NCBI RefSeq assembly: GCF_036711975.1
Contig: NC_091972.1
Span: 5,001 to 69,000 of the forward strand
Direction: 5' to 3'
DNA: 64,000 nucleotides
Source of the DNA: Onthophagus taurus
Taxonomy: Eukaryota; Arthropoda; Insecta; Coleoptera; Scarabaeidae
Part shown: positions 1-53,617 of the stretch, in pieces
Position numbering within the stretch: position 1 is the stretch's first letter
Layout of the letters: each line of letters begins with the position of its first letter
Notes under the pieces: model-generated
The model's input: the letters and a program-made list of their open reading frames with translations, nothing else
What the model was told of the DNA's origin: nothing
Databases searched by the model: none
Position numbers and translations under genes: made by a program

Positions 1-1092
1 ACCCTACCGCAACCCAACCCTACCGCAACCCAACCCTACCGCAACCCAACCCTACCGCAACCCAACCCTACCGCAACCCAACCCTACCGCAACCCAACCC
101 TACCGCAACCCAACCCTACCGCAACCCAACCCTACCGCAACCCAACCCTACCGCAACCCAACCCTACCGCAACCCAACCCTACCGCAACCCAACCCTACC
201 GCAACCCAACCCTACCGCAACCCAACCCTACCGCAACCCAACCCTACCGCAACCCAACCCTACCGCAACCCAACCCTACCGCAACCCAACCCTACCGCAA
301 CCCAACCCTACCGCAACCCAACCCTACCGCAACCCAACCCTACCGCAACCCAACCCTACCGCAACCCAACCCTACCGCAACCCAACCCTACCGCAACCCA
401 ACCCTACCGCAACCCAACCCTACCGCAACCCAACCCTACCGCAACCCAACCCTACCGCAACCCAACCCTACCGCAACCCAACCCTACCGCAACCCAACCC
501 TACCGCAACCCAACCCTACCGCAACCCAACCCTACCGCAACCCAACCCTACCGCAACCCAACCCTACCGCAACCCAACCCTACCGCAACCCAACCCTACC
601 GCAACCCAACCCTACCGCAACCCAACCCTACCGCAACCCAACCCTACCGCAACCCAACCCTACCGCAACCCAACCCTACCGCAACCCAACCCTACCGCAA
701 CCCAACCCTACCGCAACCCAACCCTACCGCAACCCAACCCTACCGCAACCCAACCCTACCGCAACCCAACCCTACCGCAACCCAACCCTACCGCAACCCA
801 ACCCTACCGCAACCCAACCCTACCGCAACCCAACCCTACCGCAACCCAACCCTACCGCAACCCAACCCTACCGCAACCCAACCCTACCGCAACCCAACCC
901 TACCGCAACCCAACCCTACCGCAACCCAACCCTACCGCAACCCAACCCTACCGCAACCCAACCCTACCGCAACCCAACCCTACCGCAACCCAACCCTACC
1001 GCAACCCAACCCTACCGCAACCCAACCCTACCGCAACCCAACCCTACCGCAACCCAACCCTACCGCAACCCAACCCTACCGCAACCCAACCC
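1..1092 (-). repeat. Telomeric array of a 16-bp unit
   Basis: The plus strand repeats ACCCTACCGCAACCCA without a visible error for about 68 units. It then breaks down at 1093 into degenerate CCAACC/AACC steps. The G-rich strand is the minus strand and runs 5' to 3' toward base 1, the orientation expected of a telomerase-made chromosome end. Written in telomere form the unit is TTGCGGTAGGGTTGGG. It looks like TAGGG and TTGGG modules joined by TTGCGG. Insects usually have TTAGG and many beetles TCAGG. Calling it telomeric is an inference from orientation, perfect homogeneity and terminal position. A simple subtelomeric satellite is the alternative. Confidence 0.88.
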
Positions 1093-1280
1093 AACCAAAC
1101 CCTCGAACTTTTCTGCCACTTTCTCCTCAAAAAAAAACTTGAGTTGTAATAAATCCATTATCACATGCAATTTCGAGAACATTTTTGTTTTCGTTCCATT
1201 TAAATGAATCTTGATGTTTCTGCAAGAAATGTTGCGCTCGGCGTAACGTGTTTGCCGTAATACCGAATGGTGAGCGCCAT
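1093..1280 (-). pseudogene. JHAMT-like methyltransferase, 5' fragment cut by the telomere
   Basis: Reading from an ATG at 1280, the minus strand gives MALTIRYYGKHVTP and then, after a frame change, a stretch with KHQDSFKWNENKNVLEI and ACDNGFITTQ. This matches the N-terminal SAM-binding start of juvenile hormone acid O-methyltransferase-like proteins and the neighbouring copy at about 2340 (KHKNLFHW, NILEIGGGNGVIT). A further frame change gives EEKVAEKFEGLVG, which is the next part of the family. The coding sequence then runs straight into TTGGG-type telomere repeats. It is non-functional: the frame is broken at least twice and everything downstream is missing. Confidence 0.62.
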
Positions 1281-1334
1281 GCGGGCGTACAACATACCTG
1301 TCACTAAAAATTATTAGCACACAAAACGTTTTAA

Positions 1335-2370
1335 TCATAAAAGTGATTCACCTAGAATAATTTCATCATCTGTAAAGATAACATCAACCGTATCGATTTC
1401 AATCATTTTGATTGTAAAACCGGCGTTTTCTAATATTTTAGTAATACTTTCAACATGATTAGGACCGTAATCAACGAATAAATCCGGACAATTTTCGATA
1501 TACTTTTTCCAAGGTGTTGATTTTTCCATTTTTTGATCGTCTATTGCTTTTGTGAAACAATTTGGAATTATATTTAACGTGGCAAATACATCACCATTGT
1601 GTGTTAGTATATTATACACATTTTTAGCCCAACTAAAAAATATTCTAAAGTTATACAATGTTTAAGTAGCAATGAATGGAATGGTGAATTAAAAAATATG
1701 TTTTTTATTGTTTAATAACACTTACTTGTTAATGGTAAACGCGAAACTAAATATTTCTTTAGAGAATTCGTTAATTATAATATTTAACTTTAAAATATTT
1801 TGTAGGTATATTTTGAACTCTTGAAACTCCAGGATAATAATTTTAATAAGAATTACTACCTACTCTATATAATTATATTCGTAAACTTTAACGAATATTC
1901 AACATATTGAGCGGTATGGAAATGTACAGCAATTATGATTACATAACACTTCAAAAGATATCAAATTTGAAAATTTTAATAACAAAATTTATCTCTATAA
2001 CCTACATTTCTCTCCAACGTTCTAATGTTCAAATAAACTTACCCTTCCGTCGGTTTAGCTAATTGTTAGCAATAAAATGCAAAAATGTGTTAAAACTTTA
2101 CAAAATATTCTATCCCAACCTCAGGATCAGTAACATCCATTTGAACAAACGATCAATTTATTTTATTATAATTCTTTTTGGCTACATCAACAGCTTCTTG
2201 ACAATAATCACTTCCTATTAACTGATTTAAATATTTTTCAATGAAAGGATGAACCACCGTGTGTGTTATAACACCATTTCCACCTCCAATTTCTAATATG
2301 TTTTCTTTATCACACCAATGAAACAAATTTTTATGTTTATTCAAAAATTATTCTCCATGCTTGATAGTGT
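1335..2370 (-). pseudogene. JHAMT-like methyltransferase, second tandem copy, decayed
   Basis: This is a SAM-dependent methyltransferase of the juvenile-hormone-acid methyltransferase type. The N-terminal exon (about 2370-2109) encodes MENNF, then LNKHKNLFHW, NILEIGGGNGVIT (the SAM-binding glycine motif), GSDYCQEAVDVAKKNYNKIN and VQMDVTDPE. One T is missing from a T run near 2345, and an in-frame TGA follows KIN near 2156. A short exon around 1735-1790 gives KEIFSFAF, ending at a GTAAGT donor. The exon at about 1349-1640 gives SWAKNVYNILTHNGDVFATLNII and KYIENCPDLF, ending near a GTGAAT donor. No C-terminal exon follows before the next copy. The protein family is clear; the exact exon joins are inferred. 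Probably a dead subtelomeric duplicate. Confidence 0.6.
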
Positions 2371-6636: not shown

Positions 6637-10065
<3,429 letters not shown>

Positions 10066-22427: not shown

Positions 22428-25400
22428 TCATGATAATTGAGATACTTTTATGCTATTTCGATTTGATCTATTAATAGGCGATAACAAACATGATCCGCTT
22501 AGGTTTGGTAAACATTTTAGGAGACTTTGGAAGTTTGGTGACCTTTGATTCCCGTTTATTGGCACAGTATGTAAATGTAAAAGTTCTTCTAAGTCGCTCT
22601 CCCTATAAATTATAAAATATTAATAAAAAATAACAAGTTAAACAATAAATTACGTTAAATTTAAGATTTTAATAGGAGTTTTGATTGTTACATTGACAAA
22701 CTTCAGAGGGGTTGAGAATTTAAAACAGCATGCATTTTGAGTATACTACTCACCTAGCTGTTTCCAGGAAATTAGTGAAAGCGATGATTCTTGGTACTTC
22801 AGAATGTTTAGTTAAATGGCAAAAAAGCTCAGTTTCTCTATTATACAAATAGATAAAATCATTGAGTTGTTTGGCCACAATAGCTGTTCTATCTTTCATT
22901 GACAACTTTTGACTTGGAGGCTAAAAATATTTTATAAAAGTAAAAATATTTAAGTTATTTAGGGCCGGTTGTACCACCTCCCGATAAACTATCTAGCGGA
23001 TAATTACCATGGTTACAGCGGTTTTAAACGCTCTCATTGGCTAAGTGCGCCAATTTATCTATGGAATAAACTTATCGGGTGGTGGTACAACCGGCCCTAA
23101 GTGAAACAATTTCCCCCAATAAGATTATGGAAAAATGAAAAACAATCTATAAATCCTGACACGTAATGACTCAAATAGTGACGTTAAACCTGCAATTAAA
23201 ACACTAGGCCTGGAACTAAAAACATTCTAAGCACTATTATTAGAACTAATATTAGACCTAGTCATTATTTTAAACATCATCATTTGAAGACAGACCACCA
23301 TGTCTAGATAAATATAATAGCTTTGTTCCAACAATCGGCTTGACTCGTCGTAGACTCGTCAAATGTAATCACACAGCTAAATATTGCAATAAAATCCGTT
23401 AAAATGTGACGACATTACTTGACATGTACGATTACATTTGACAAGTAACGGACGAGTCGGACCGCTTGTTGGAACAAAGCTAATATTAATCATATCTAAT
23501 TGATGTTTAATGTATAACTAAATGATTTTGTTGTGCAGGGCCTTTATAAATTTATCAATAGTAACATACCTTAATAGCAAATGGTGATTTTAAATAATTT
23601 GATGCTCGCTGTAAAAATTTTAAAACAATTTCAACATGCCCTTCTTCTGTTGGTGAATTTGCAATTCTCTTTAAAATGCAATTAAGATACTGACTAAATG
23701 CTTTTCTGATTTCTATGGGGCTATAAAGTATTACATTAAATACAAAAATTAGGTATACACAGTTCAGTACAATATTTGTTGAGTTAAAATTTAAATATTA
23801 GCTTTTTTAAACTACAACTTGATACTAGTTTAGCGGTTAATATAAACGCAGTTAATGTCAAACTTGGCTCAACAAATACCGTAGGAGGTGTATTTTTTGG
23901 TTCACTTTACGTTAATTTTTGTCCATTTTTCACCATATCACAGATTTGTTTCTTCAATTCGGCTGATTCCGACTCGTGTAATGGTTTATGCGGCGGAAGA
24001 AGCGTTTTATGCCCTTGAGTTAGTTTCCGTTCATAGCGATCTTGTCGTTGAAGGGCAATTAAACCTAAAATTATAAATACAAGTAGAAAAATATAATTCA
24101 AGAATCAAACATTTTTAAAGCACTTGGATACCTTTACTATCCAAAGACAAATCTCGTGTTTTATCCAAACTTTTTAAATGTCCTCGATCTAATTTTAATG
24201 TACTGCTAGCCATTTCAGGAAATAAGTGATTAAAAAGTAATAAATTCATATTATGTGGTATTTGAATATTGTAATTACTGGTGATGCTACAAGCCATTGG
24301 TACTCCTGTTATCGGATCTAAAATTTACAAATATCGGAATTCATAAGAAACATCATTAATAATTCTGTTTTAAATGAATCACCTAAATATTGGCCATATT
24401 TGCTCCAACTATCAACTGTAGGAAAAATACGAACGAAACCACCCCTACGATCAAATTGAGCCTTAGCCATTTTTATAATACGCTGTTCTTCCTGCGATAA
24501 ATTTAACGTGCTGGTTGTTAGTCGTCCATGTTGGGATGGAGACGAATTTTTTTTTGGCAACGTGTTACTTAATCCGTCAGCAGAGTGCACTCTGTGGTAC
24601 TAAATTACAAAAGAAATTTTAATTTATAAAGTTACTTATTTCACATTATCGTTTTACACGAGATTATTGTTACAATAAAAGACAACATCCTTTAAGACTT
24701 ACCGCATTAAGTTTCATTCTTAAACTATTATTAGTTCTCGAGTTTTTCGATGAAAGTGTTGTTACGCTCATACGAAGCATAGGATCGATGGCCGGAATAC
24801 CAATAAGAGTTAGCAAATCGGCCAGCATTGCCGATTTCAATCTGACGTCAAGCGGACTATCACATCCTAACGATGGTGATAGATTTATTTCAAGAAGCCA
24901 AGGCTTTAAAGTATCATCCACCAGTATATCAAAACCATAAAGTTCTTTCAAAAAGAAAAAGATTATGAAACTCAAAATAAAAAAAATATTCTTTTCCCTG
25001 AAACTGCTATGTTGAACATTTGATATATTTCCGGATTTGGAAGCCAGTTTTACAGTTTCAGGAAAAAATTAATATAATTTACGTGTGCAGAAAGTCATTT
25101 GCAGACTCTAACTTAAACAACTAATATAATTACCAAAACAGTTATTAATGCTTGGAACAAACATTTTACATGCTGTAACTATTGAATTTCCAGACGATAA
25201 AATCGATTTTACAACTAAATCTTCAATCTGAGACATTAAATTAGCTGTATCATTACCCATAGCCTTTAAATGCCTTAACAAAGCACTTAAAGTCCATTTA
25301 TGACCAACATTCTCTGCACTCGGATCATCAGATCTAAAAAAAAACCAAAAAAGATAAAAATGTTATCAAAATCACCAAACTAATCTTAAATTCATACTTT

Positions 25401-26560
25401 ACATAATCACTGTGATACTTATTGATGCTATAGTTGCATAAATGCATACAAGGATTCCATAACGTTTTATGACTAGTATCGTATTTAACAGTAGCAAATC
25501 GAACCATTCCTTCTTCATAAATATAAATTATTAAAGGATCAAAACAAGTAACCGCAACGTAAAGTCTTAAATCGCATTTATGGCCCTCGACAAGAAGAGG
25601 TTTCGCAACATATTTTGCAACCACGACGGGTTCTTCTAATGGTACTTGATTTGGCGTTTCAACAATATAAATACCTCTCCCGCGACTTGAAGCAACCGGC
25701 TTAACAATCCAAGGTCCCTTGGTCCGATGATGAGTCGAGCAAAGATCTTTGTATTCGCTTGGCATAACAAAGGTTTGGGGGATAAAATCAAAATGTTTAT
25801 ACCCTTTCATATGTTGCATTTTCTCAATATTTTTATATAGCCGATCCTTTCTTGTCAATTCGTAAGATCGCGGAAAGTGATTTACTTTTTGATGAGATGC
25901 TAAACAACGAAACGTTCCCGGTTTGGGATGCGAACCAGTCCATAAGATGTTAAAATCCGAAGAAGTCGGTATAACTTCGGTTATTCCATGACATTCTAAA
26001 AGTTTTGCCAATAATTTTGTTTCAGCTTGTAGGACTTTGTAAGTAATATGGAGTTTATAGGCCGGTTTACTTTGGATGGTGATATCTGTGGCGTTTGCCA
26101 AAGCTGAACTTCGGAATATAAGTATTGCATTTTTTGAACCTAAAGGACCACCAATGATCCATGTATCCGGGGACAAAAGATCCTCGTGAGTTAAAGCATC
26201 TCTATCACTACAAAGTAAATTGAAGATTTCAATAAATATTGGTAAACATAATCTACTCTAATACAACCAACTTTTTAAAAGCAAAAAATAGTATATTCTA
26301 ATAAAAAACAATACTAGATTCCATTAAGTTATTTTGTAGGCTTTAAATCAAATTATTTAAAGCCATAATAGAAGCAATTAACCTACTTATTTTAATATTG
26401 ATGTTCGTATTTTTACGACTCATTCCATGTTAAAGAATGAATAAAAAACAATTTCTAAAAAAGTTTGCAAACAAAACTTTACTTACTAAAAAACTAAATT
26501 TGTTAAACGATTCAATTCTTCAAAATTTCGTTTCGAGGCCTTCCGCCCTCTCTTAACCAT
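22428..26560 (-). CDS. TTLL5: Tubulin polyglutamylase, TTLL5 type
   Basis: Adds glutamate chains to tubulin tails in cilia, centrioles or neurons. Ten exons: 26487-26560, 25398-26207, 25134-25333, 24703-24944, 24383-24599, 24132-24317, 23911-24064, 23570-23720, 22754-22920 and 22428-22602, giving 791 aa. The TTL domain is complete: [40 protein letters not shown] (ATP grasp), [24 protein letters not shown] and [20 protein letters not shown] (metal-binding E and N). The later exons match the TTLL5 tail ([40 protein letters not shown]). Exon 7 has a possible read-through stop (TAA at 23907-23909) straddling its GTAAAG donor. The start ATG (26560) is set by a 24-codon first exon whose phase fits exon 2. 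Two MITEs sit in intron 8. Confidence 0.93.
22962..23097. mobile_element. 136-bp MITE with TA target site
   Basis: Terminal inverted repeats GGGCCGGTTGTACCACC and GGTGGTACAACCGGCCC, extended inward by CCGATAA/TTATCGG, are flanked by TA on both sides. There is no coding capacity. The TA duplication suggests mobilisation by a Tc1/mariner-type transposase. It lies in TTLL5 intron 8. Confidence 0.85.
23320..23480. mobile_element. 161-bp MITE with TA target site
   Basis: Inverted ends GCTTTGTTCCAACAA and TTGTTGGAACAAAGC are flanked by TA on each side. Sub-terminal repeats (GACTCGTC, TCAAATGTAATC) are also inverted. It is a different family from the MITE 220 bp away in the same TTLL5 intron. No coding capacity. 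Confidence 0.87.
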
Positions 26561-29605: not shown

Positions 29606-33791
<4,186 letters not shown>

Positions 33792-48800: not shown

Positions 48801-51800
48801 TCTTTAAACTATTGCCAACTATAGTTTTAGCTTCTTGTTAAAGCTATCCAAGAAATTATTACTGTGATTAAGTTATTTTAAGCGATCTCATGGTTAATTA
48901 ATTGTAATGGTAATTATTGAAATTTGGTTTTAAAAATTTTTTGTATTTAAGAGAAATTAAACATATAAGACAAAGATTTTATTCAATAGAGACAGATCAT
49001 TCTGTGGTCATATCTTCCAAAAATCATATTCTATATTACTTGTTTACCTATTTTGTTGATTTAAAAATGTTATAAGAGTGGTTTTGTAGAACTTAAAAGC
49101 AACATCACGTTCTAAAATTTGATATCATTAAAGAAAAAAGGTTTTTTTTAATTGTCTTGACATTGAAACCCTTCAATGTCAAGTAAGTTGATGTGGTAGT
49201 TTATCGTCAAACATTTTCTCGAATCGCAGTATATCGCTTGACATTGCCACTCTCATTTCTCGCATTAAATGGATTTTTCAGTGATGTTTTCTTTTAATTA
49301 CAACTATTGTTGAAAATCTGGCTGAGCATATGGCAGAGATAGATTCTATAGCTAGATAAATTTTGAGAGAATTGAGTACTAATTAAGTAGTACGGTCACG
49401 TAAAGTCATGAAATTATTTTTAATATCTTCTCAAGTACCTCCGCAAATTAATTTCTTAACATAGTATTCTAGTTTAATGAGACTTTTATTTTAATTTTTT
49501 GTAGATATCCCTCATAAACGAAAATATAAAAAGAATTCGAGATCGTATTTCAACGTCCAGCATAAACATTTTGCATTCTTGTGGCCACGTGTCCTAGTTG
49601 ACGGAACATCTTTATACCGAACACCTGTATATATGTATTATGTATAAATGCAAGGTTATTCGTGGAGAAATTAGATATTCATTCAACCGACTTTTCTATT
49701 ATATTTTTCATTTAATACAATGTTTTATTCAATTTATTTATTTACATTTTAATATAGATAATGCTGAAATGTGGATTTTGTGTGTGTTTTAAGTTATAGC
49801 ATAAACTCGAAGATATTATTTGCTTTAAAGTAAATTAACTTAATTAACAATAGGGCTGAATGCGACCGTTAAAATTTTACGATGGCCCATTTTCTGTACG
49901 ACGACGATGGTGCTGTAATTCATCACATAACGGTGTCGTTAATGTATTTATTGATATTACGCAAAATTGAATTGGATCCTAAAGGTCGCCACTGTTTGAA
50001 CTTGGTTTAATATCGGGTTAATGTAAATAAAATATTTATCTACCACTATATCATTCTCGGCGAACAATGAGCAATTCATTTTTCGGTCATAATTATAAAC
50101 TTATCAACATGCTTAATCATAAATAATGTCTCTAATTTAATCTTGAAATCTAATAAACTCTAGCTCAAAACTGTGGTTTTAGATTATCGTATCCGCTTGA
50201 TTTATTTCATGTCTTAATAAGAATTCTTGATATTTTGAATTAAATTAAACAATGAGCACTACCAATTGTACTTCAATTTAGAGAGTAGTTCGTGTCTTAA
50301 TCCGAAATGTAAATAAAAAAGAATGTCCATTTAGAGATGTTTATAGCATTGTACGGCCGTTTCTTGACACGCTACTAGGTAAATTGACATCAACTGACCT
50401 CAACGTTGCGTCAGTCCATCTCATCGCTTATCTAATTCTCAAATAAAACGATTATTTTCATTACTTCTACTACATTCTAGGTTCATTGCGACAAGCGTTT
50501 CGAATGATTAGGAACCCGTTGGGAACAAATGAGTCATTACTAAAAGAGCTCTACACTAAAATTCTAACATTTTGAAGAAAATAATAATAACAACCTTTTA
50601 TGGTTGTCCCAATGTCTCAATCAATGAACAACACGAGCCGGTAAGAACTCGCGTTTTTTTTAGAGCCTCTACCCCATTTAGAAGTGGGTCAGGTCGCCGC
50701 AACGACGTCTGGCGTCGTCGACGACGTGAAGTCGGCCGTATCTTTACGACTAATTTTTTTTCTTCTAAATGGGGGCTTAATTGGTCGCGTCTATGCAATG
50801 ATATTATACTGTAAACAACGGAGCATCGCGACGACCTGCTAAATCGATAGCAGCGGAACCCTTTTGTGTATTTTCCGCACAGACAAACTTCGCGAGTTAA
50901 TGAGACACTTTTCGTTTATGCTAAAAGAATCGCGCCACGATTTGAATCAAGGGCGTTTTAATTTTTAAGCTGTTTTCGCTCGTGGTAATAAGGACTACGC
51001 CTTTATCACTTGTATTGTGTCGCAACGCGGCATTTTCAATACTTGGCAACGTGAATTTTATCTTAGTATGCCAAAAAGCCATATTTGTTGGAAACAGTTA
51101 TATTAACTAATTCTAATTAGAATACTAAACTTTAATTAGGGTATTTATAACATTTAGTTTTTAATGAATGAATGAAAACGGTTAGAATTGTAAATGTTGA
51201 TCACATTGATTGTAATTACGATTAAAATACAGTTTGAGGTAGTAAAACATTTTCAACTTCCTGTTAGACAATGCAAGTCAATAAGAACGTAACATTGGGC
51301 CTAATAAATATAAAGAGTTTGTTCATATTCCATATATTTAAAGAGTATTTATTAGTATTAATTATTTGTATTAGGTTCCTTGTATTTTTTATTACCTTGT
51401 TGATACAAGCAAATGCTCAAAGTATTTTAACATTTTTTTATTCATAAAATAATAAAAATGAATTGATAATGTTTATCAAGTAATATATACATGAATGATG
51501 TTTTTAACTAGACGTTTCTTTTACAATTGCTTCAGATGTGCCATCGGGTGAACAAGAAGAGTTATTCATCAGAAAACTGAGACAATGTTGTGTCTCGTTT
51601 GATTTTATGGACCCGGTGGCTGACCTAAAGGGCAAGGAGGTAAAGAGATGCACGCTGAACGAGCTGGTCGATTACATCACAGGTGGCCGAGGAGTCTTGA
51701 CCGAGCCGGTCTATCCGGAGATAATCAAGATGATCTCGGACAATCTATTTCGGACGTTGCCGCCGAGCGAAAACCCGGATTTCGATCCAGAAGAGGATGA

Positions 51801-53617
51801 TCCGACGCTCGAGGCTAGCTGGCCCCATCTTCAGCTTGTCTATGAGTTCTTTCTTCGGTTCCTCGAAAGCTCCGACTTTCAGCCGAGTATCGGCAAGCGC
51901 GTCATAGACCAGAAGTTCGTGCTGCAATTGCTTGAATTGTTCGACTCGGAGGACCCGAGGGAGCGTGACTTCCTCAAAACAGTTTTACACAGGATCTATG
52001 GGAAATTTCTCGGTTTGAGAGCGTTTATACGGAAACAAATTAATAATATATTCCTTAGGTAACAAATAAAACGCTTGTTTCTTATTTTGTTTCGTAAAAA
52101 CTTGTTCTTTGTAGATTTGTGTACGAGACTGAACATTTTAACGGTGTCGGTGAGCTGCTAGAAATTCTAGGTTCCATTATAAACGGGTTCGCGCTGCCCC
52201 TAAAGGCAGAGCACAAGCAATTTCTGATCAAGGTGCTGATACCGTTGCATAAGGTGAAGTGCCTCTCGTTGTATCACGCCCAGCTTGCGTATTGCGTCGT
52301 GCAATTTCTCGAGAAAGATCCTAACCTTACTGAGCCTGTTGTTAGGGGCTTGCTCAAATACTGGCCCAAGACGTGCAGTCAAAAAGAGGTGATGTTTCTT
52401 GGCGAAATCGAGGAAGTCCTCGACGTTATTGAACCGTCGCAATTCACTCGCATACAAGAACCACTTTTCCGTCAGATATCAAAATGCGTTTCCAGTCCCC
52501 ACTTTCAGGTAAAATCAATTTTTAAATAAATTACTAATTTTTGAATTATAACTTTATTAATAATTTTAGGTGGCTGAAAGAGCTCTGTACTTTTGGAACA
52601 ACGAGTACATTATGTCACTGATGGAGGAAAATAACCACGTCATTATGCCAATTATGTTTCCAGCACTATATCGTATTTCCAAGGAGCATTGGAACCAAAC
52701 GATTGTAGCACTAGTCTACAACGTACTCAAGACCTTCATGGAAATGAACTCGAAGCTGTTTGATGAATTGACAGCTAGTTACAAAGCCGAACGGCAAAGG
52801 TAAGTCTAAAAAAAGGGAGTAAAGAATAATTTTATTTTAATCTGTAATCATTTTGCTATGAATTTAAAAAAAGCTCCATTAATAAATCGCGTCTTTTCTT
52901 GTTTTGATACCTTAACAGGTTTTTAGCAGAGGAATGACAACTGTATACTTTTTTTTATAACAGTAGCAAAACTTTGCTACCTGATTTTTCTAAATCGAAA
53001 AAATAATGTAATGCATGTAGAAGAAGCACCATTCAAAGTTTGTCAACCTAAACAAGACGCACAGCTAAACCCATATTACCCTGCTAAACTCCTAATTCAG
53101 GGTCTAGTGTTAGTTCTAGTTTTAGTTCAATAAAAATATATAACAACCTGACGCTGAATGACAACTAACACTGACACTTTTACTAGAACTAACATTAGAC
53201 TTACAACTAAAAACATTCGGGTTTAGGCATGTGTTTCTTAAGACGTCTAAATCTGAATGCTTCTAGTTTTAAGTCCAGTGTTAGTTTTAGTTTAGTTCAA
53301 GAAAAGATATAAAGATTCAAGAAAATTGATACATTGTTGTTGAACTAAAACTAGAATTAACACTTGCACAATCATTAGAACTAACACAAGGTGCGCCTTC
53401 TGACGCACGGTTAAACACGCAGATTTCATCATATAAATGAAATGTACAAATTTTTAAATAGGATTTTAATATATACTTACAATTTTTTATAAATTCTTCT
53501 AGAGAGAAAAAACGTGAAAAAGAACGAGATGAATTGTGGAAACGATTAGGTGAACTAGAAATAAGTCATTCAAAGAAAATGATAGGATCGCACAACAGTC
53601 CTCCCGGCAAGAAGTGA
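42805..53617 (+). CDS. wdb: PP2A B56 regulatory subunit (widerborst/PPP2R5)
   Basis: Regulatory B' subunit that targets protein phosphatase 2A. Exons 42805-42943, 51536-52058, 52115-52508, 52570-52799 and 53503-53617 give 466 aa, the size of the epsilon-type B56. Start [20 protein letters not shown]; the B56 repeat domain begins [20 protein letters not shown] and [17 protein letters not shown], continues through [17 protein letters not shown] and [20 protein letters not shown], and ends with a basic tail ([20 protein letters not shown]). Intron 1 is 8.6 kb. Exons 2 and 3 are strikingly richer in G and C at third positions than their surroundings. The 3'UTR probably runs to about 56190, with several AATAAA signals and a UGUAAAUA Pumilio-type site at 54054. 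Confidence 0.97.
42944..51535. other. 8.6-kb first intron of widerborst
   Basis: The largest intron in the window. It contains a repeat cluster (47040-47560) and GC-richer islands near 48050-48650 and 50640-50960. The second island includes an inverted pair CCCCATTTAGAAG/CTTCTAAATGGGG (50669-50773). A near-palindromic GTAACCATGGCAAC lies at 43403-43416. No gene is recognised inside. Long first introns often hold enhancers; that role is an inference here. Confidence 0.45.
47040..47560. repeat. Dispersed foldback repeat, copy B (wdb intron 1)
   Basis: Several inverted and direct blocks: GAAACATTCGGGTTTAGCCG and its relatives, CTAGAACTAACACTAG-type steps, and CTGAAGAAGGTTGCAACATG followed by GCATCCGAAACGTTAAACAC at 47446-47485. 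It is compound, with at least three partial units in alternating orientation. Confidence 0.7.
53040..53420. repeat. Dispersed foldback repeat, copy C (wdb intron 4)
   Basis: Degenerate blocks of the same family (GACGCACAGCTAAACCC, TTCGGGTTTAGGCATG, CTAGTGTTAGTTCTAG) occupy about 380 bp of intron 4. The CTGAAGA/CGAAAC core is not preserved here. Confidence 0.6.

What the first reader, a model, noticed from the sequence alone, without database searches (positions are those of the whole stretch)
1..1092. Chromosome end capped by a 16-bp telomere-like motif
Sixty-eight identical copies of TTGCGGTAGGGTTGGG (G-strand outward) form the terminus in place of TTAGG or TCAGG. The unit reads as TAGGG and TTGGG modules joined by TTGCGG. 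If made by telomerase, the RNA template must span more than 16 nt or be used in two phases. The perfect homogeneity fits templated synthesis better than old satellite decay.
Basis: partly seen in the sequence, partly recalled or inferred. Interest (0 to 1): 0.85.

Follow-up and report, generated by a model that had tools for sequence, protein, structure and literature searches.

The report
Telomere-derived 16-bp repeat near chromosome end
One chromosome end of what is very probably a dung beetle carries a perfectly repeated 16-letter block made of altered copies of the animal's real 5-letter telomere repeat; other ends carry their own such blocks, so it is more likely a by-product of telomere evolution than a new telomerase motif, although the blocks share one odd GC-rich piece.

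Summary
The array is real: period 16 holds without a mismatch over window 1-1092 (68.25 units). But the window starts 5 kb inside its scaffold (those 5 kb read N), and the exact 16-mer occurs nowhere else in the readable 290.8-Mb assembly. Assembly statistics point to Onthophagus taurus Otau3.0. Eight of 61 readable scaffold ends run in (TTGGG)n to the last base; none carries the 16-mer. Nine scaffold ends have a located, very homogeneous higher-order array of TTGGG plus altered units (16, 17, 21 or 22 bp); at six of the nine, (TTGGG)n lies distal. The 16-mer is TTGCGG+TAGGG+TTGGG; C5, C10 and C16 carry close kin. Best explanation: telomerase (inferred) makes TTGGG; altered units in the proximal telomere were amplified by slippage, unequal exchange or small circles and partly exchanged between ends. 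A 16-nt telomerase template is unnecessary and unsupported, though not excluded. Such arrays are known in Arabidopsis; unusual here are length, uniformity and exactly one YGCGG in each of seven unit types. TERT was not found, in searches without a positive control; no telomerase RNA was identified.

The parts
1..1092 (-). Higher-order telomeric variant array, (TTGCGG TAGGG TTGGG)n read on the minus strand from centromere side to telomere side; perfect period 16, 68.25 units
   Evidence: 67 exact 16-mers, found nowhere else in the readable assembly
1085..1104 (-). Proximal edge of the array (overlaps its last period): minus strand reads GAGGG TTTGG TTGGG TTGGG before the first TTGCGG, i.e. plain and slightly altered TTGGG units precede the 16-mer
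   Evidence: sequence, minus-strand view, token parse
1105..2350 (-). Flank with two short broken reading frames similar to each other (48% over 31 aa); one has sub-threshold matches to methyltransferase profiles; the outer one (1127-1300) ends about 23 bp from the array edge
   Evidence: best Pfam E 0.0016, 18.5 bits, below the curated cut-off of 27

Best explanation
The array is a chromosome-end-specific higher-order repeat (HOR) of variant telomeric units in the centromere-proximal part of a (TTGGG)n telomere, very probably of Onthophagus taurus. Shown: the 16-mer is three 5-bp units with one inserted C and one T-to-A change (TTG[C]GG, TAGGG, TTGGG); plain TTGGG units precede it on the proximal side; eight other scaffold ends have analogous HORs, and at six of these TTGGG follows distally. 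Inferred: telomerase with a TTGGG template maintains the distal tract; altered units that arose in the proximal tract, beyond the reach of telomerase, were amplified by replication slippage, unequal sister-chromatid exchange or copying from a small telomeric circle, and some cassettes moved between ends (TTGCGG-TAGGG on C5, C7, C10 and C16; TTCGCGG on C2 and C8). The unreadable 5 kb at this end would then hold mainly TTGGG tract, with or without telomeric retroposons.
For: 8 of 61 readable scaffold ends finish in (TTGGG)n (sequences). HOR arrays, uninterrupted periodic run in units (token parse): C7 left 16 bp x68.2; C5 left 21 bp x30.4; C10 left 21 bp x21.6; C7 right 22 bp x102.3; C2 left 17 bp x123.5; C8 left 17 bp x25.8; C1 right 17 bp x53.3 in the 2.5 kb read, with a contiguous run of hits reaching back to 44,236,675; C11 left 22 bp x9.0. 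C16 right: 25 hits of the 21-bp unit's 19-mer. TTGGG lies directly distal to the HOR at 6 of these 9 (C1 right, C2, C5, C7 right, C8, C16); unreadable at C7 left and C10; on C11 the array lies between TTGGG units. The 11-mer TTGCGGTAGGG has 143 hits: 68 on C7, 31 on C5, 2 on C10 and about 25 on C16, leaving about 17, against 36 for the reversed control. The two innermost C10 units are TTGCGG-TAGGG-CAGGG-TTGGG, the C5/C16 unit, before the change to CAGGG-CAGGG. TTGGG was already listed from database sequence for O. taurus and shown terminal by Bal31 and FISH in Anoplotrupes stercorosus (PMC8233369, passages). Precedent for the process: PMC11406999 (passages).
Against: The distal neighbour of this particular array cannot be read, so a TTGGG cap at this end is inferred from the others. 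TERT was not found with two Pfam models or with Tribolium TERT as query, and no telomerase RNA was identified; the Pfam searches rang in no control genome and the protein search had no positive control, so they say little. The reference is one assembly; polymorphism between individuals, which exchange or slippage predicts, was not tested. Each unit type has a GCGG-type unit, which independent random mutation alone explains poorly. Listings stop at 100 places, so 105 forward TTCGCGG hits and 25 of the 33 reverse hits (8 are on C11) were not located and could lie anywhere.
Confidence: 0.83

Rival explanations
1. A telomerase with a template longer than 16 nt (or a second telomerase RNA paralogue) synthesises the 16-mer directly.
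For: Perfect homogeneity over 1,092 bp; Tribolium has two telomerase RNA paralogues, and template changes track telomere changes in beetles (PMC13023368, parts 1 and 2 of 3 read).
Against: The 16-mer is at 1 of 66 scaffold ends, 5 of the 66 reading N; 8 of the 61 readable ones are TTGGG to the last base. Seven different unit types would need seven templates. Every template of 18 nt or more contains at least one of four words searched. Outside the arrays the 11-mer has about 17 hits against 36 for its reversed control, the 14-mer 44 outside C7 against 36, and the 13-mer 7 listed single hits plus 21 forward hits that I place on C16 by inference, against 4. The single hits were not read, so a template is not excluded.
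Confidence: 0.03
2. Telomerase is absent and this species keeps its ends by recombination alone; end-specific arrays and TTGGG tracts are both copied between ends (compare cynipoid wasps, described as telomerase-independent in PMC13023368, and telomerase-negative yeasts, known to me only from a title cited there).
For: Different homogeneous arrays at different ends; cassettes shared among some ends; no TERT found here; TERT is reported undetected in Dynastinae, Rutelinae, Cetoniinae and Hopliini among scarabs (PMC13023368).
Against: The distal tract is the same simple 5-mer at 8 ends, which is what a templated enzyme gives. In beetles the same paper infers loss where telomeric repeats, TR and TERT are all undetected, and repeats are present here. 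The TERT searches lacked a positive control; of the eight best hits, 5 carry a GIY-YIG-like motif as in Penelope-like elements.
Confidence: 0.1
3. An ordinary subtelomeric satellite of independent origin that happens to resemble telomere units.
For: It is a homogeneous tandem array next to non-repeated DNA.
Against: The modules are one or two edits from TTGGG, plain TTGGG units sit at its proximal edge, and the sister arrays contain TTGGG units and at 6 of 9 ends pass directly into the TTGGG tract.
Confidence: 0.02
4. Assembly artefact (collapsed or mis-extended terminal repeat).
For: The neighbouring 5 kb are not readable here, and terminal repeats are hard to assemble.
Against: If the species is right, the assembly was made from 86.6x PacBio HiFi reads with read N50 13.8 kb (PMC10942260, passages), far longer than the readable array; nine scaffold ends show the same kind of design. 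No reads were examined.
Confidence: 0.02

Closest known systems
Variant telomeric repeats with local homogenisation and higher-order repeats at Arabidopsis thaliana chromosome ends (PMC11406999; passages, including part of the abstract)
   Same: Variants of the canonical unit next to the canonical array; blocks of two to four units repeated as HORs; chromosome-end-specific; explained there by slippage and unequal crossing over
   Different: Here the blocks are long and nearly perfectly uniform (9 to 124 periods), mostly one unit type per end, and each unit type contains one YGCGG
(TTGGG)n telomeres of beetles: Onthophagus taurus (database sequence), Anoplotrupes stercorosus (Bal31 + FISH) (PMC8233369, passages); also the lacewing Nineta flava (PMC12564400, passages)
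   Same: Same 5-bp distal motif at chromosome ends
   Different: The passages I saw do not mention end-specific variant arrays; the 16-mer is not the telomeric motif
M-16, M-22 and T-14 short repeats of Rhynchosciara americana (PMC7694509, passages)
   Same: Short tandem units (16 nt for M-16, 14 bp for T-14) at or near insect chromosome ends
   Different: Diptera lack telomerase; the passages do not derive those units from a simple telomere repeat; unit letters were not compared
SART/TRAS telomere-specific non-LTR retroposons (Bombyx details recalled; the names appear in PMC12564400)
   Same: Non-LTR elements with EN and RT domains inserted at one position of the telomere unit (TT^GGG here)
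   Different: Only the company the arrays keep on C11 and C16, not the array itself; no phylogenetic placement done

Membership tests
Telomerase-templated 16-bp telomeric repeat | Present at most chromosome ends | tested here: not met
   16-mer at 1 of 66 scaffold ends; 67 hits in the readable assembly, all in one array; all 33 starts and 33 ends read for at least 300 bases, 5 of the 66 reading N at the very end
Telomerase-templated 16-bp telomeric repeat | Reaches the physical terminus | tested here: inconclusive
   5 kb distal to it read N
Telomerase-templated 16-bp telomeric repeat | Matching template in a telomerase RNA | tested here: inconclusive
   No full 16-mer outside the array; shorter rotation words show no clear excess outside arrays; single hits not read
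(TTGGG)n telomere | Motif runs to the last base of scaffold ends | tested here: met
   8 of 61 readable ends: C1 both, C2, C5 and C8 left, C6, C7 and C29 right
(TTGGG)n telomere | Sensitive to Bal31 / terminal FISH | not testable with these tools
   Reported for Anoplotrupes stercorosus (PMC8233369, passages)
Variant telomeric repeat higher-order array | Units differ from the canonical unit by a few edits | tested here: met
   TTGCGG = one insertion, TAGGG = one substitution
Variant telomeric repeat higher-order array | Lies between non-telomeric DNA and the canonical array | tested here: inconclusive
   Proximal side met here, distal side unreadable; TTGGG distal at 6 sister arrays; the proximal side of C1 right and C16 was not read
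Variant telomeric repeat higher-order array | Chromosome-end-specific composition | tested here: met
   16-mer only at C7 left; other ends have 17, 21 or 22 bp units, though some units are shared by two or three ends
Variant telomeric repeat higher-order array | Copy number polymorphic between individuals | not testable with these tools
   One assembly only
Telomerase-negative end maintenance | No TERT gene | tested here: inconclusive
   No TERT hit, but no positive control rang

The most novel reading that the evidence does not exclude
The once-per-unit YGCGG element in all seven HOR unit types (and, twice per unit, in the 41-bp repeat beside the C2 array) is kept by selection: a binding site for a subtelomeric factor, spaced 16-22 bp, that marks the inner border of (TTGGG)n telomeres and is re-amplified as an array at each new end by copying from small telomeric circles. 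Only 1 of 36 single edits of TTGGG makes GCGG, so its recurrence at nine ends needs either one ancestral source spread between ends or selection.
Probability: 0.15. Interest if true: 0.7.

Novelty: new variant of a known kind. Interest (0 to 1): 0.45.

Why it matters
It turns an apparent 16-bp telomere motif into a worked example of how a long 'telomere motif' can be misread from one chromosome end: checking the other ends shows a 5-bp telomere with end-specific amplified variants. It offers a natural, assembled set of nine variant blocks in one insect in which slippage, unequal exchange, small-circle copying and spread between chromosomes could be separated with long reads. It also bears on the open question of which scarabs still use telomerase, since this genome has a simple terminal repeat while TERT is reported undetected in several other scarab groups (PMC13023368).

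Tried and rejected
Rejected: 16-nt telomerase template (distribution across ends; words). Rejected: independent satellite (modules and edges).

Led nowhere: TERT with Pfam Telomerase_RBD and TERT_thumb and with Tribolium TERT, whole or thumb region. Of the top eight of 38 hits, 5 carry a GIY-YIG-like motif (L063, L064, L067, L068, L069), so I read them as Penelope-like elements; the other 30 hits were not examined. The window flank against 20 contig-end stretches gave one 96-bp match (84%), so no sign of a shared subtelomeric block there. tRNA scan of the window: none. A five-term literature search found nothing, and the paper on end-specific arrays in telomerase-negative yeasts is not held (known only as a citation in PMC13023368). 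Searches were malformed; one search failed on a file name; one search was this report in a wrong format.

On print: a search for six array words found 11 papers (10 listed), none about beetle telomeres by title. A search for telomer + Coleoptera + higher-order repeat found 22 papers (15 listed), by title mostly satellite-DNA or review papers; none of them was opened. Supplements could not be read, among them Table S2 of PMC13023368, which may list this species. So I know of no description of these arrays, within that library only.

Full report
What is there. The window begins with a perfect tandem array: period 16 holds without one mismatch from 1 to 1092 (68.25 units), with 67 full copies of TTGCGGTAGGGTTGGG on the minus strand (TRF). 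The G-rich strand points to the scaffold end. The window is G000:C7:5001-69000 of a 290,825,966-base assembly in 33 contigs. The 5,000 bases of C7 outside the window read N, so the array is near the end, but what is distal to it cannot be seen.

Which organism. The assembly statistics point to Onthophagus taurus Otau3.0. Published: 290.862 Mb, N50 33.174 Mb, longest scaffold 44.245 Mb, 34 scaffolds, 9 over 10 Mb (PMC12902608, passages). Here: 290.826 Mb, C6 of 33,174,080, longest 44,240,000, 33 contigs, 9 over 10 Mb. Total, longest and count differ slightly. This is an inference from numbers; no sequence of a named record was compared.

Where the 16-mer occurs. The exact 16-mer has 67 hits in the readable assembly, all in this array. 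I read all 33 contig starts and all 33 contig ends for at least 300 bases. Five of these 66 ends read N at the very end (starts of C6, C7, C10, C28, C30). Of the 61 readable ends, 8 run in (TTGGG)n to the last base: C1 both ends, C2 left, C5 left, C6 right, C7 right, C8 left, C29 right. C11 left has TTGGG from about base 219, and C16 right has a decayed TTGGG tract followed by about 60 other bases. Many of the rest end in a 153-bp satellite or other non-telomeric DNA and are probably not chromosome ends. In the stretches read, TTAGG x4 occurs once (internal, C9) and TCAGG x4 not at all.

The same kind of design at other ends. I split the G-strand after each run of two or more Gs. Writing. for TTGGG: C7 left (TTGCGG TAGGG.) x68; C5 left (TTGCGG TAGGG CAGGG.) x30; C10 left two such units and then (TTGCGG CAGGG CAGGG.) x about 21; C16 right (TTGCGG TAGGG CAGGG.), 25 hits; C7 right (... 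TCGCGGG) x about 102; C2 left (.. TTCGCGG) x about 124 and C8 left x about 25; C1 right (.. TTGCGGG), 53 periods in the stretch read and at most 103 by count; C11 left (... TTGCGGG) x8. At six of nine (C1 right, C2, C5, C7 right, C8, C16) TTGGG lies directly distal to the array; at C7 left and C10 the distal side is unreadable; on C11 the array has TTGGG units on both sides. Proximally, C7 left, C8 and C10 meet non-repeated DNA, C7 right meets a retroelement-like stretch, C2 a 41-bp repeat, C5 a roughly 740-bp insert with more of the same unit beyond it; C1 right and C16 were not read there. Whole-assembly counts agree where the listing was complete (57 of 57 hits on C5, C10 and C16). For the TYGCGGG and TTCGCGG words the listing stops at 100 places: 105 forward hits of the latter, and 25 of 33 reverse hits of the former, were not located. 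The reversed-word controls gave 0.

How the 16-mer arose. TTGCGG is TTGGG with one C inserted; TAGGG is TTGGG with one substitution. At the inner edge of the array the units are GAGGG, TTTGG, TTGGG, TTGGG and only then TTGCGG. So TTGGG units lie inside the array, as expected if a TTGGG tract was there first. The flank contains two short related reading-frame remnants, one weakly methyltransferase-like. At the right end of C7 the tract starts abruptly in what reads by eye as a retrotransposon reverse transcriptase. Both would fit telomere addition to a broken end; this is inference.

Why not a 16-nt template. A telomerase product should be at most ends; this is at one. Seven unit types exist. 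Any template of 18 nt or longer contains at least one of the four words I searched. Outside the arrays TTGCGGTAGGG has about 17 hits against 36 for the reversed word, and GTAGGGTTGGGTTG has 44 outside C7 against 36. GTTGGGTTGCGGT has 129 against 4: 68 on C7, 30 on C5, 2 on C2, 1 on C10's array, 7 single places listed, and 21 forward hits not listed, which I place on C16 by inference. I did not read the single hits, so a template is not excluded, only unsupported. Homogeneity is weak evidence: at 2.8e-9 changes per site per generation (recalled insect value) no change in 1,092 bp is compatible at 95% with any age up to about 980,000 generations.

Mechanism. The precedent is Arabidopsis, where proximal variant units are homogenised and form HORs, explained by slippage and unequal crossing over, while telomerase keeps the tip uniform (PMC11406999, passages). 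I adopt this, with copying from small circles as another good source of perfect multi-unit arrays (recalled from yeast and ALT work). Sharing of TTGCGG-TAGGG among C5, C7, C10 and C16, and of TTCGCGG between C2 and C8, suggests exchange between ends. Telomerase itself is inferred: TERT was not found, but the family searches rang in no control genome, and 5 of the 8 best protein hits carry a GIY-YIG-like motif as in Penelope-like elements. TERT is reported undetected in other scarab groups (PMC13023368, parts 1 and 2 of 3 read), so a telomerase-free route cannot be dismissed.

The odd common feature. Each of the seven unit types has exactly one YGCGG, although only 1 of 36 single edits of TTGGG makes GCGG. 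Common descent with spread between ends is the plain explanation; a selected binding site is the bold one.

Telomeric retroposons. On C11 a non-LTR element with an 813-aa frame and a 1029-aa frame (the latter with endonuclease and reverse transcriptase domains) has TTGGG units on both sides. The same 5' start, directly after GGGTT, is seen at three places (two on C11, one on C16), and poly(A) is directly followed by GGGTT at three places on C11, so insertion is at TT^GGG. This supports TTGGG as the working telomere repeat.

Verdict. Real array, telomeric origin, not the telomere motif of this genome; an unusually regular variant of a known kind of structure.

Noticed in passing
L020:1114-8730 (C11 left end) and L083:84-250 (C16): Non-LTR retroposon with endonuclease and reverse transcriptase domains inserted at TT^GGG of the telomere repeat; the same 5' start after GGGTT at three places and poly(A)-GGGTT junctions at three places. 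Resembles SART-type telomere-specific elements (recalled).
   Followed up: partly
L016:2101-2420 (C7 right end): The telomere tract starts abruptly inside what reads by eye as a Ty3/gypsy-type reverse transcriptase, as if a broken end had been healed.
   Followed up: no
L011:7320-7964 and 9121-9240 (C2 left end): A 41-bp repeat beside the telomere tract that also contains TTGCGGG and TTGCGG and passes into the TTCGCGG array through mixed units.
   Followed up: partly
L013, L033, L036, L038, L040 and several small contigs: A 153-bp satellite fills many contig ends; probably the pericentromeric satellite.
   Followed up: no
L062-L069: Reverse transcriptase elements that are the best matches to TERT in this genome; 5 of 8 carry a GIY-YIG-like motif (Penelope-like by eye).
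   Followed up: partly
L018:4413-4445 (C9): Short internal run of TTAGG (6.6 units), the ancestral insect telomere repeat, in a genome with TTGGG at its readable telomeric ends.
   Followed up: no
window 8830-9937, 25334-26176, 30056-31210, 51538-52529: Ordinary genes near this end: a PLP-dependent enzyme followed by a CBS-domain match (cystathionine beta-synthase-like), a tubulin-tyrosine ligase family protein, a Sec23/24 protein, and a PP2A B56 subunit.
   Followed up: partly
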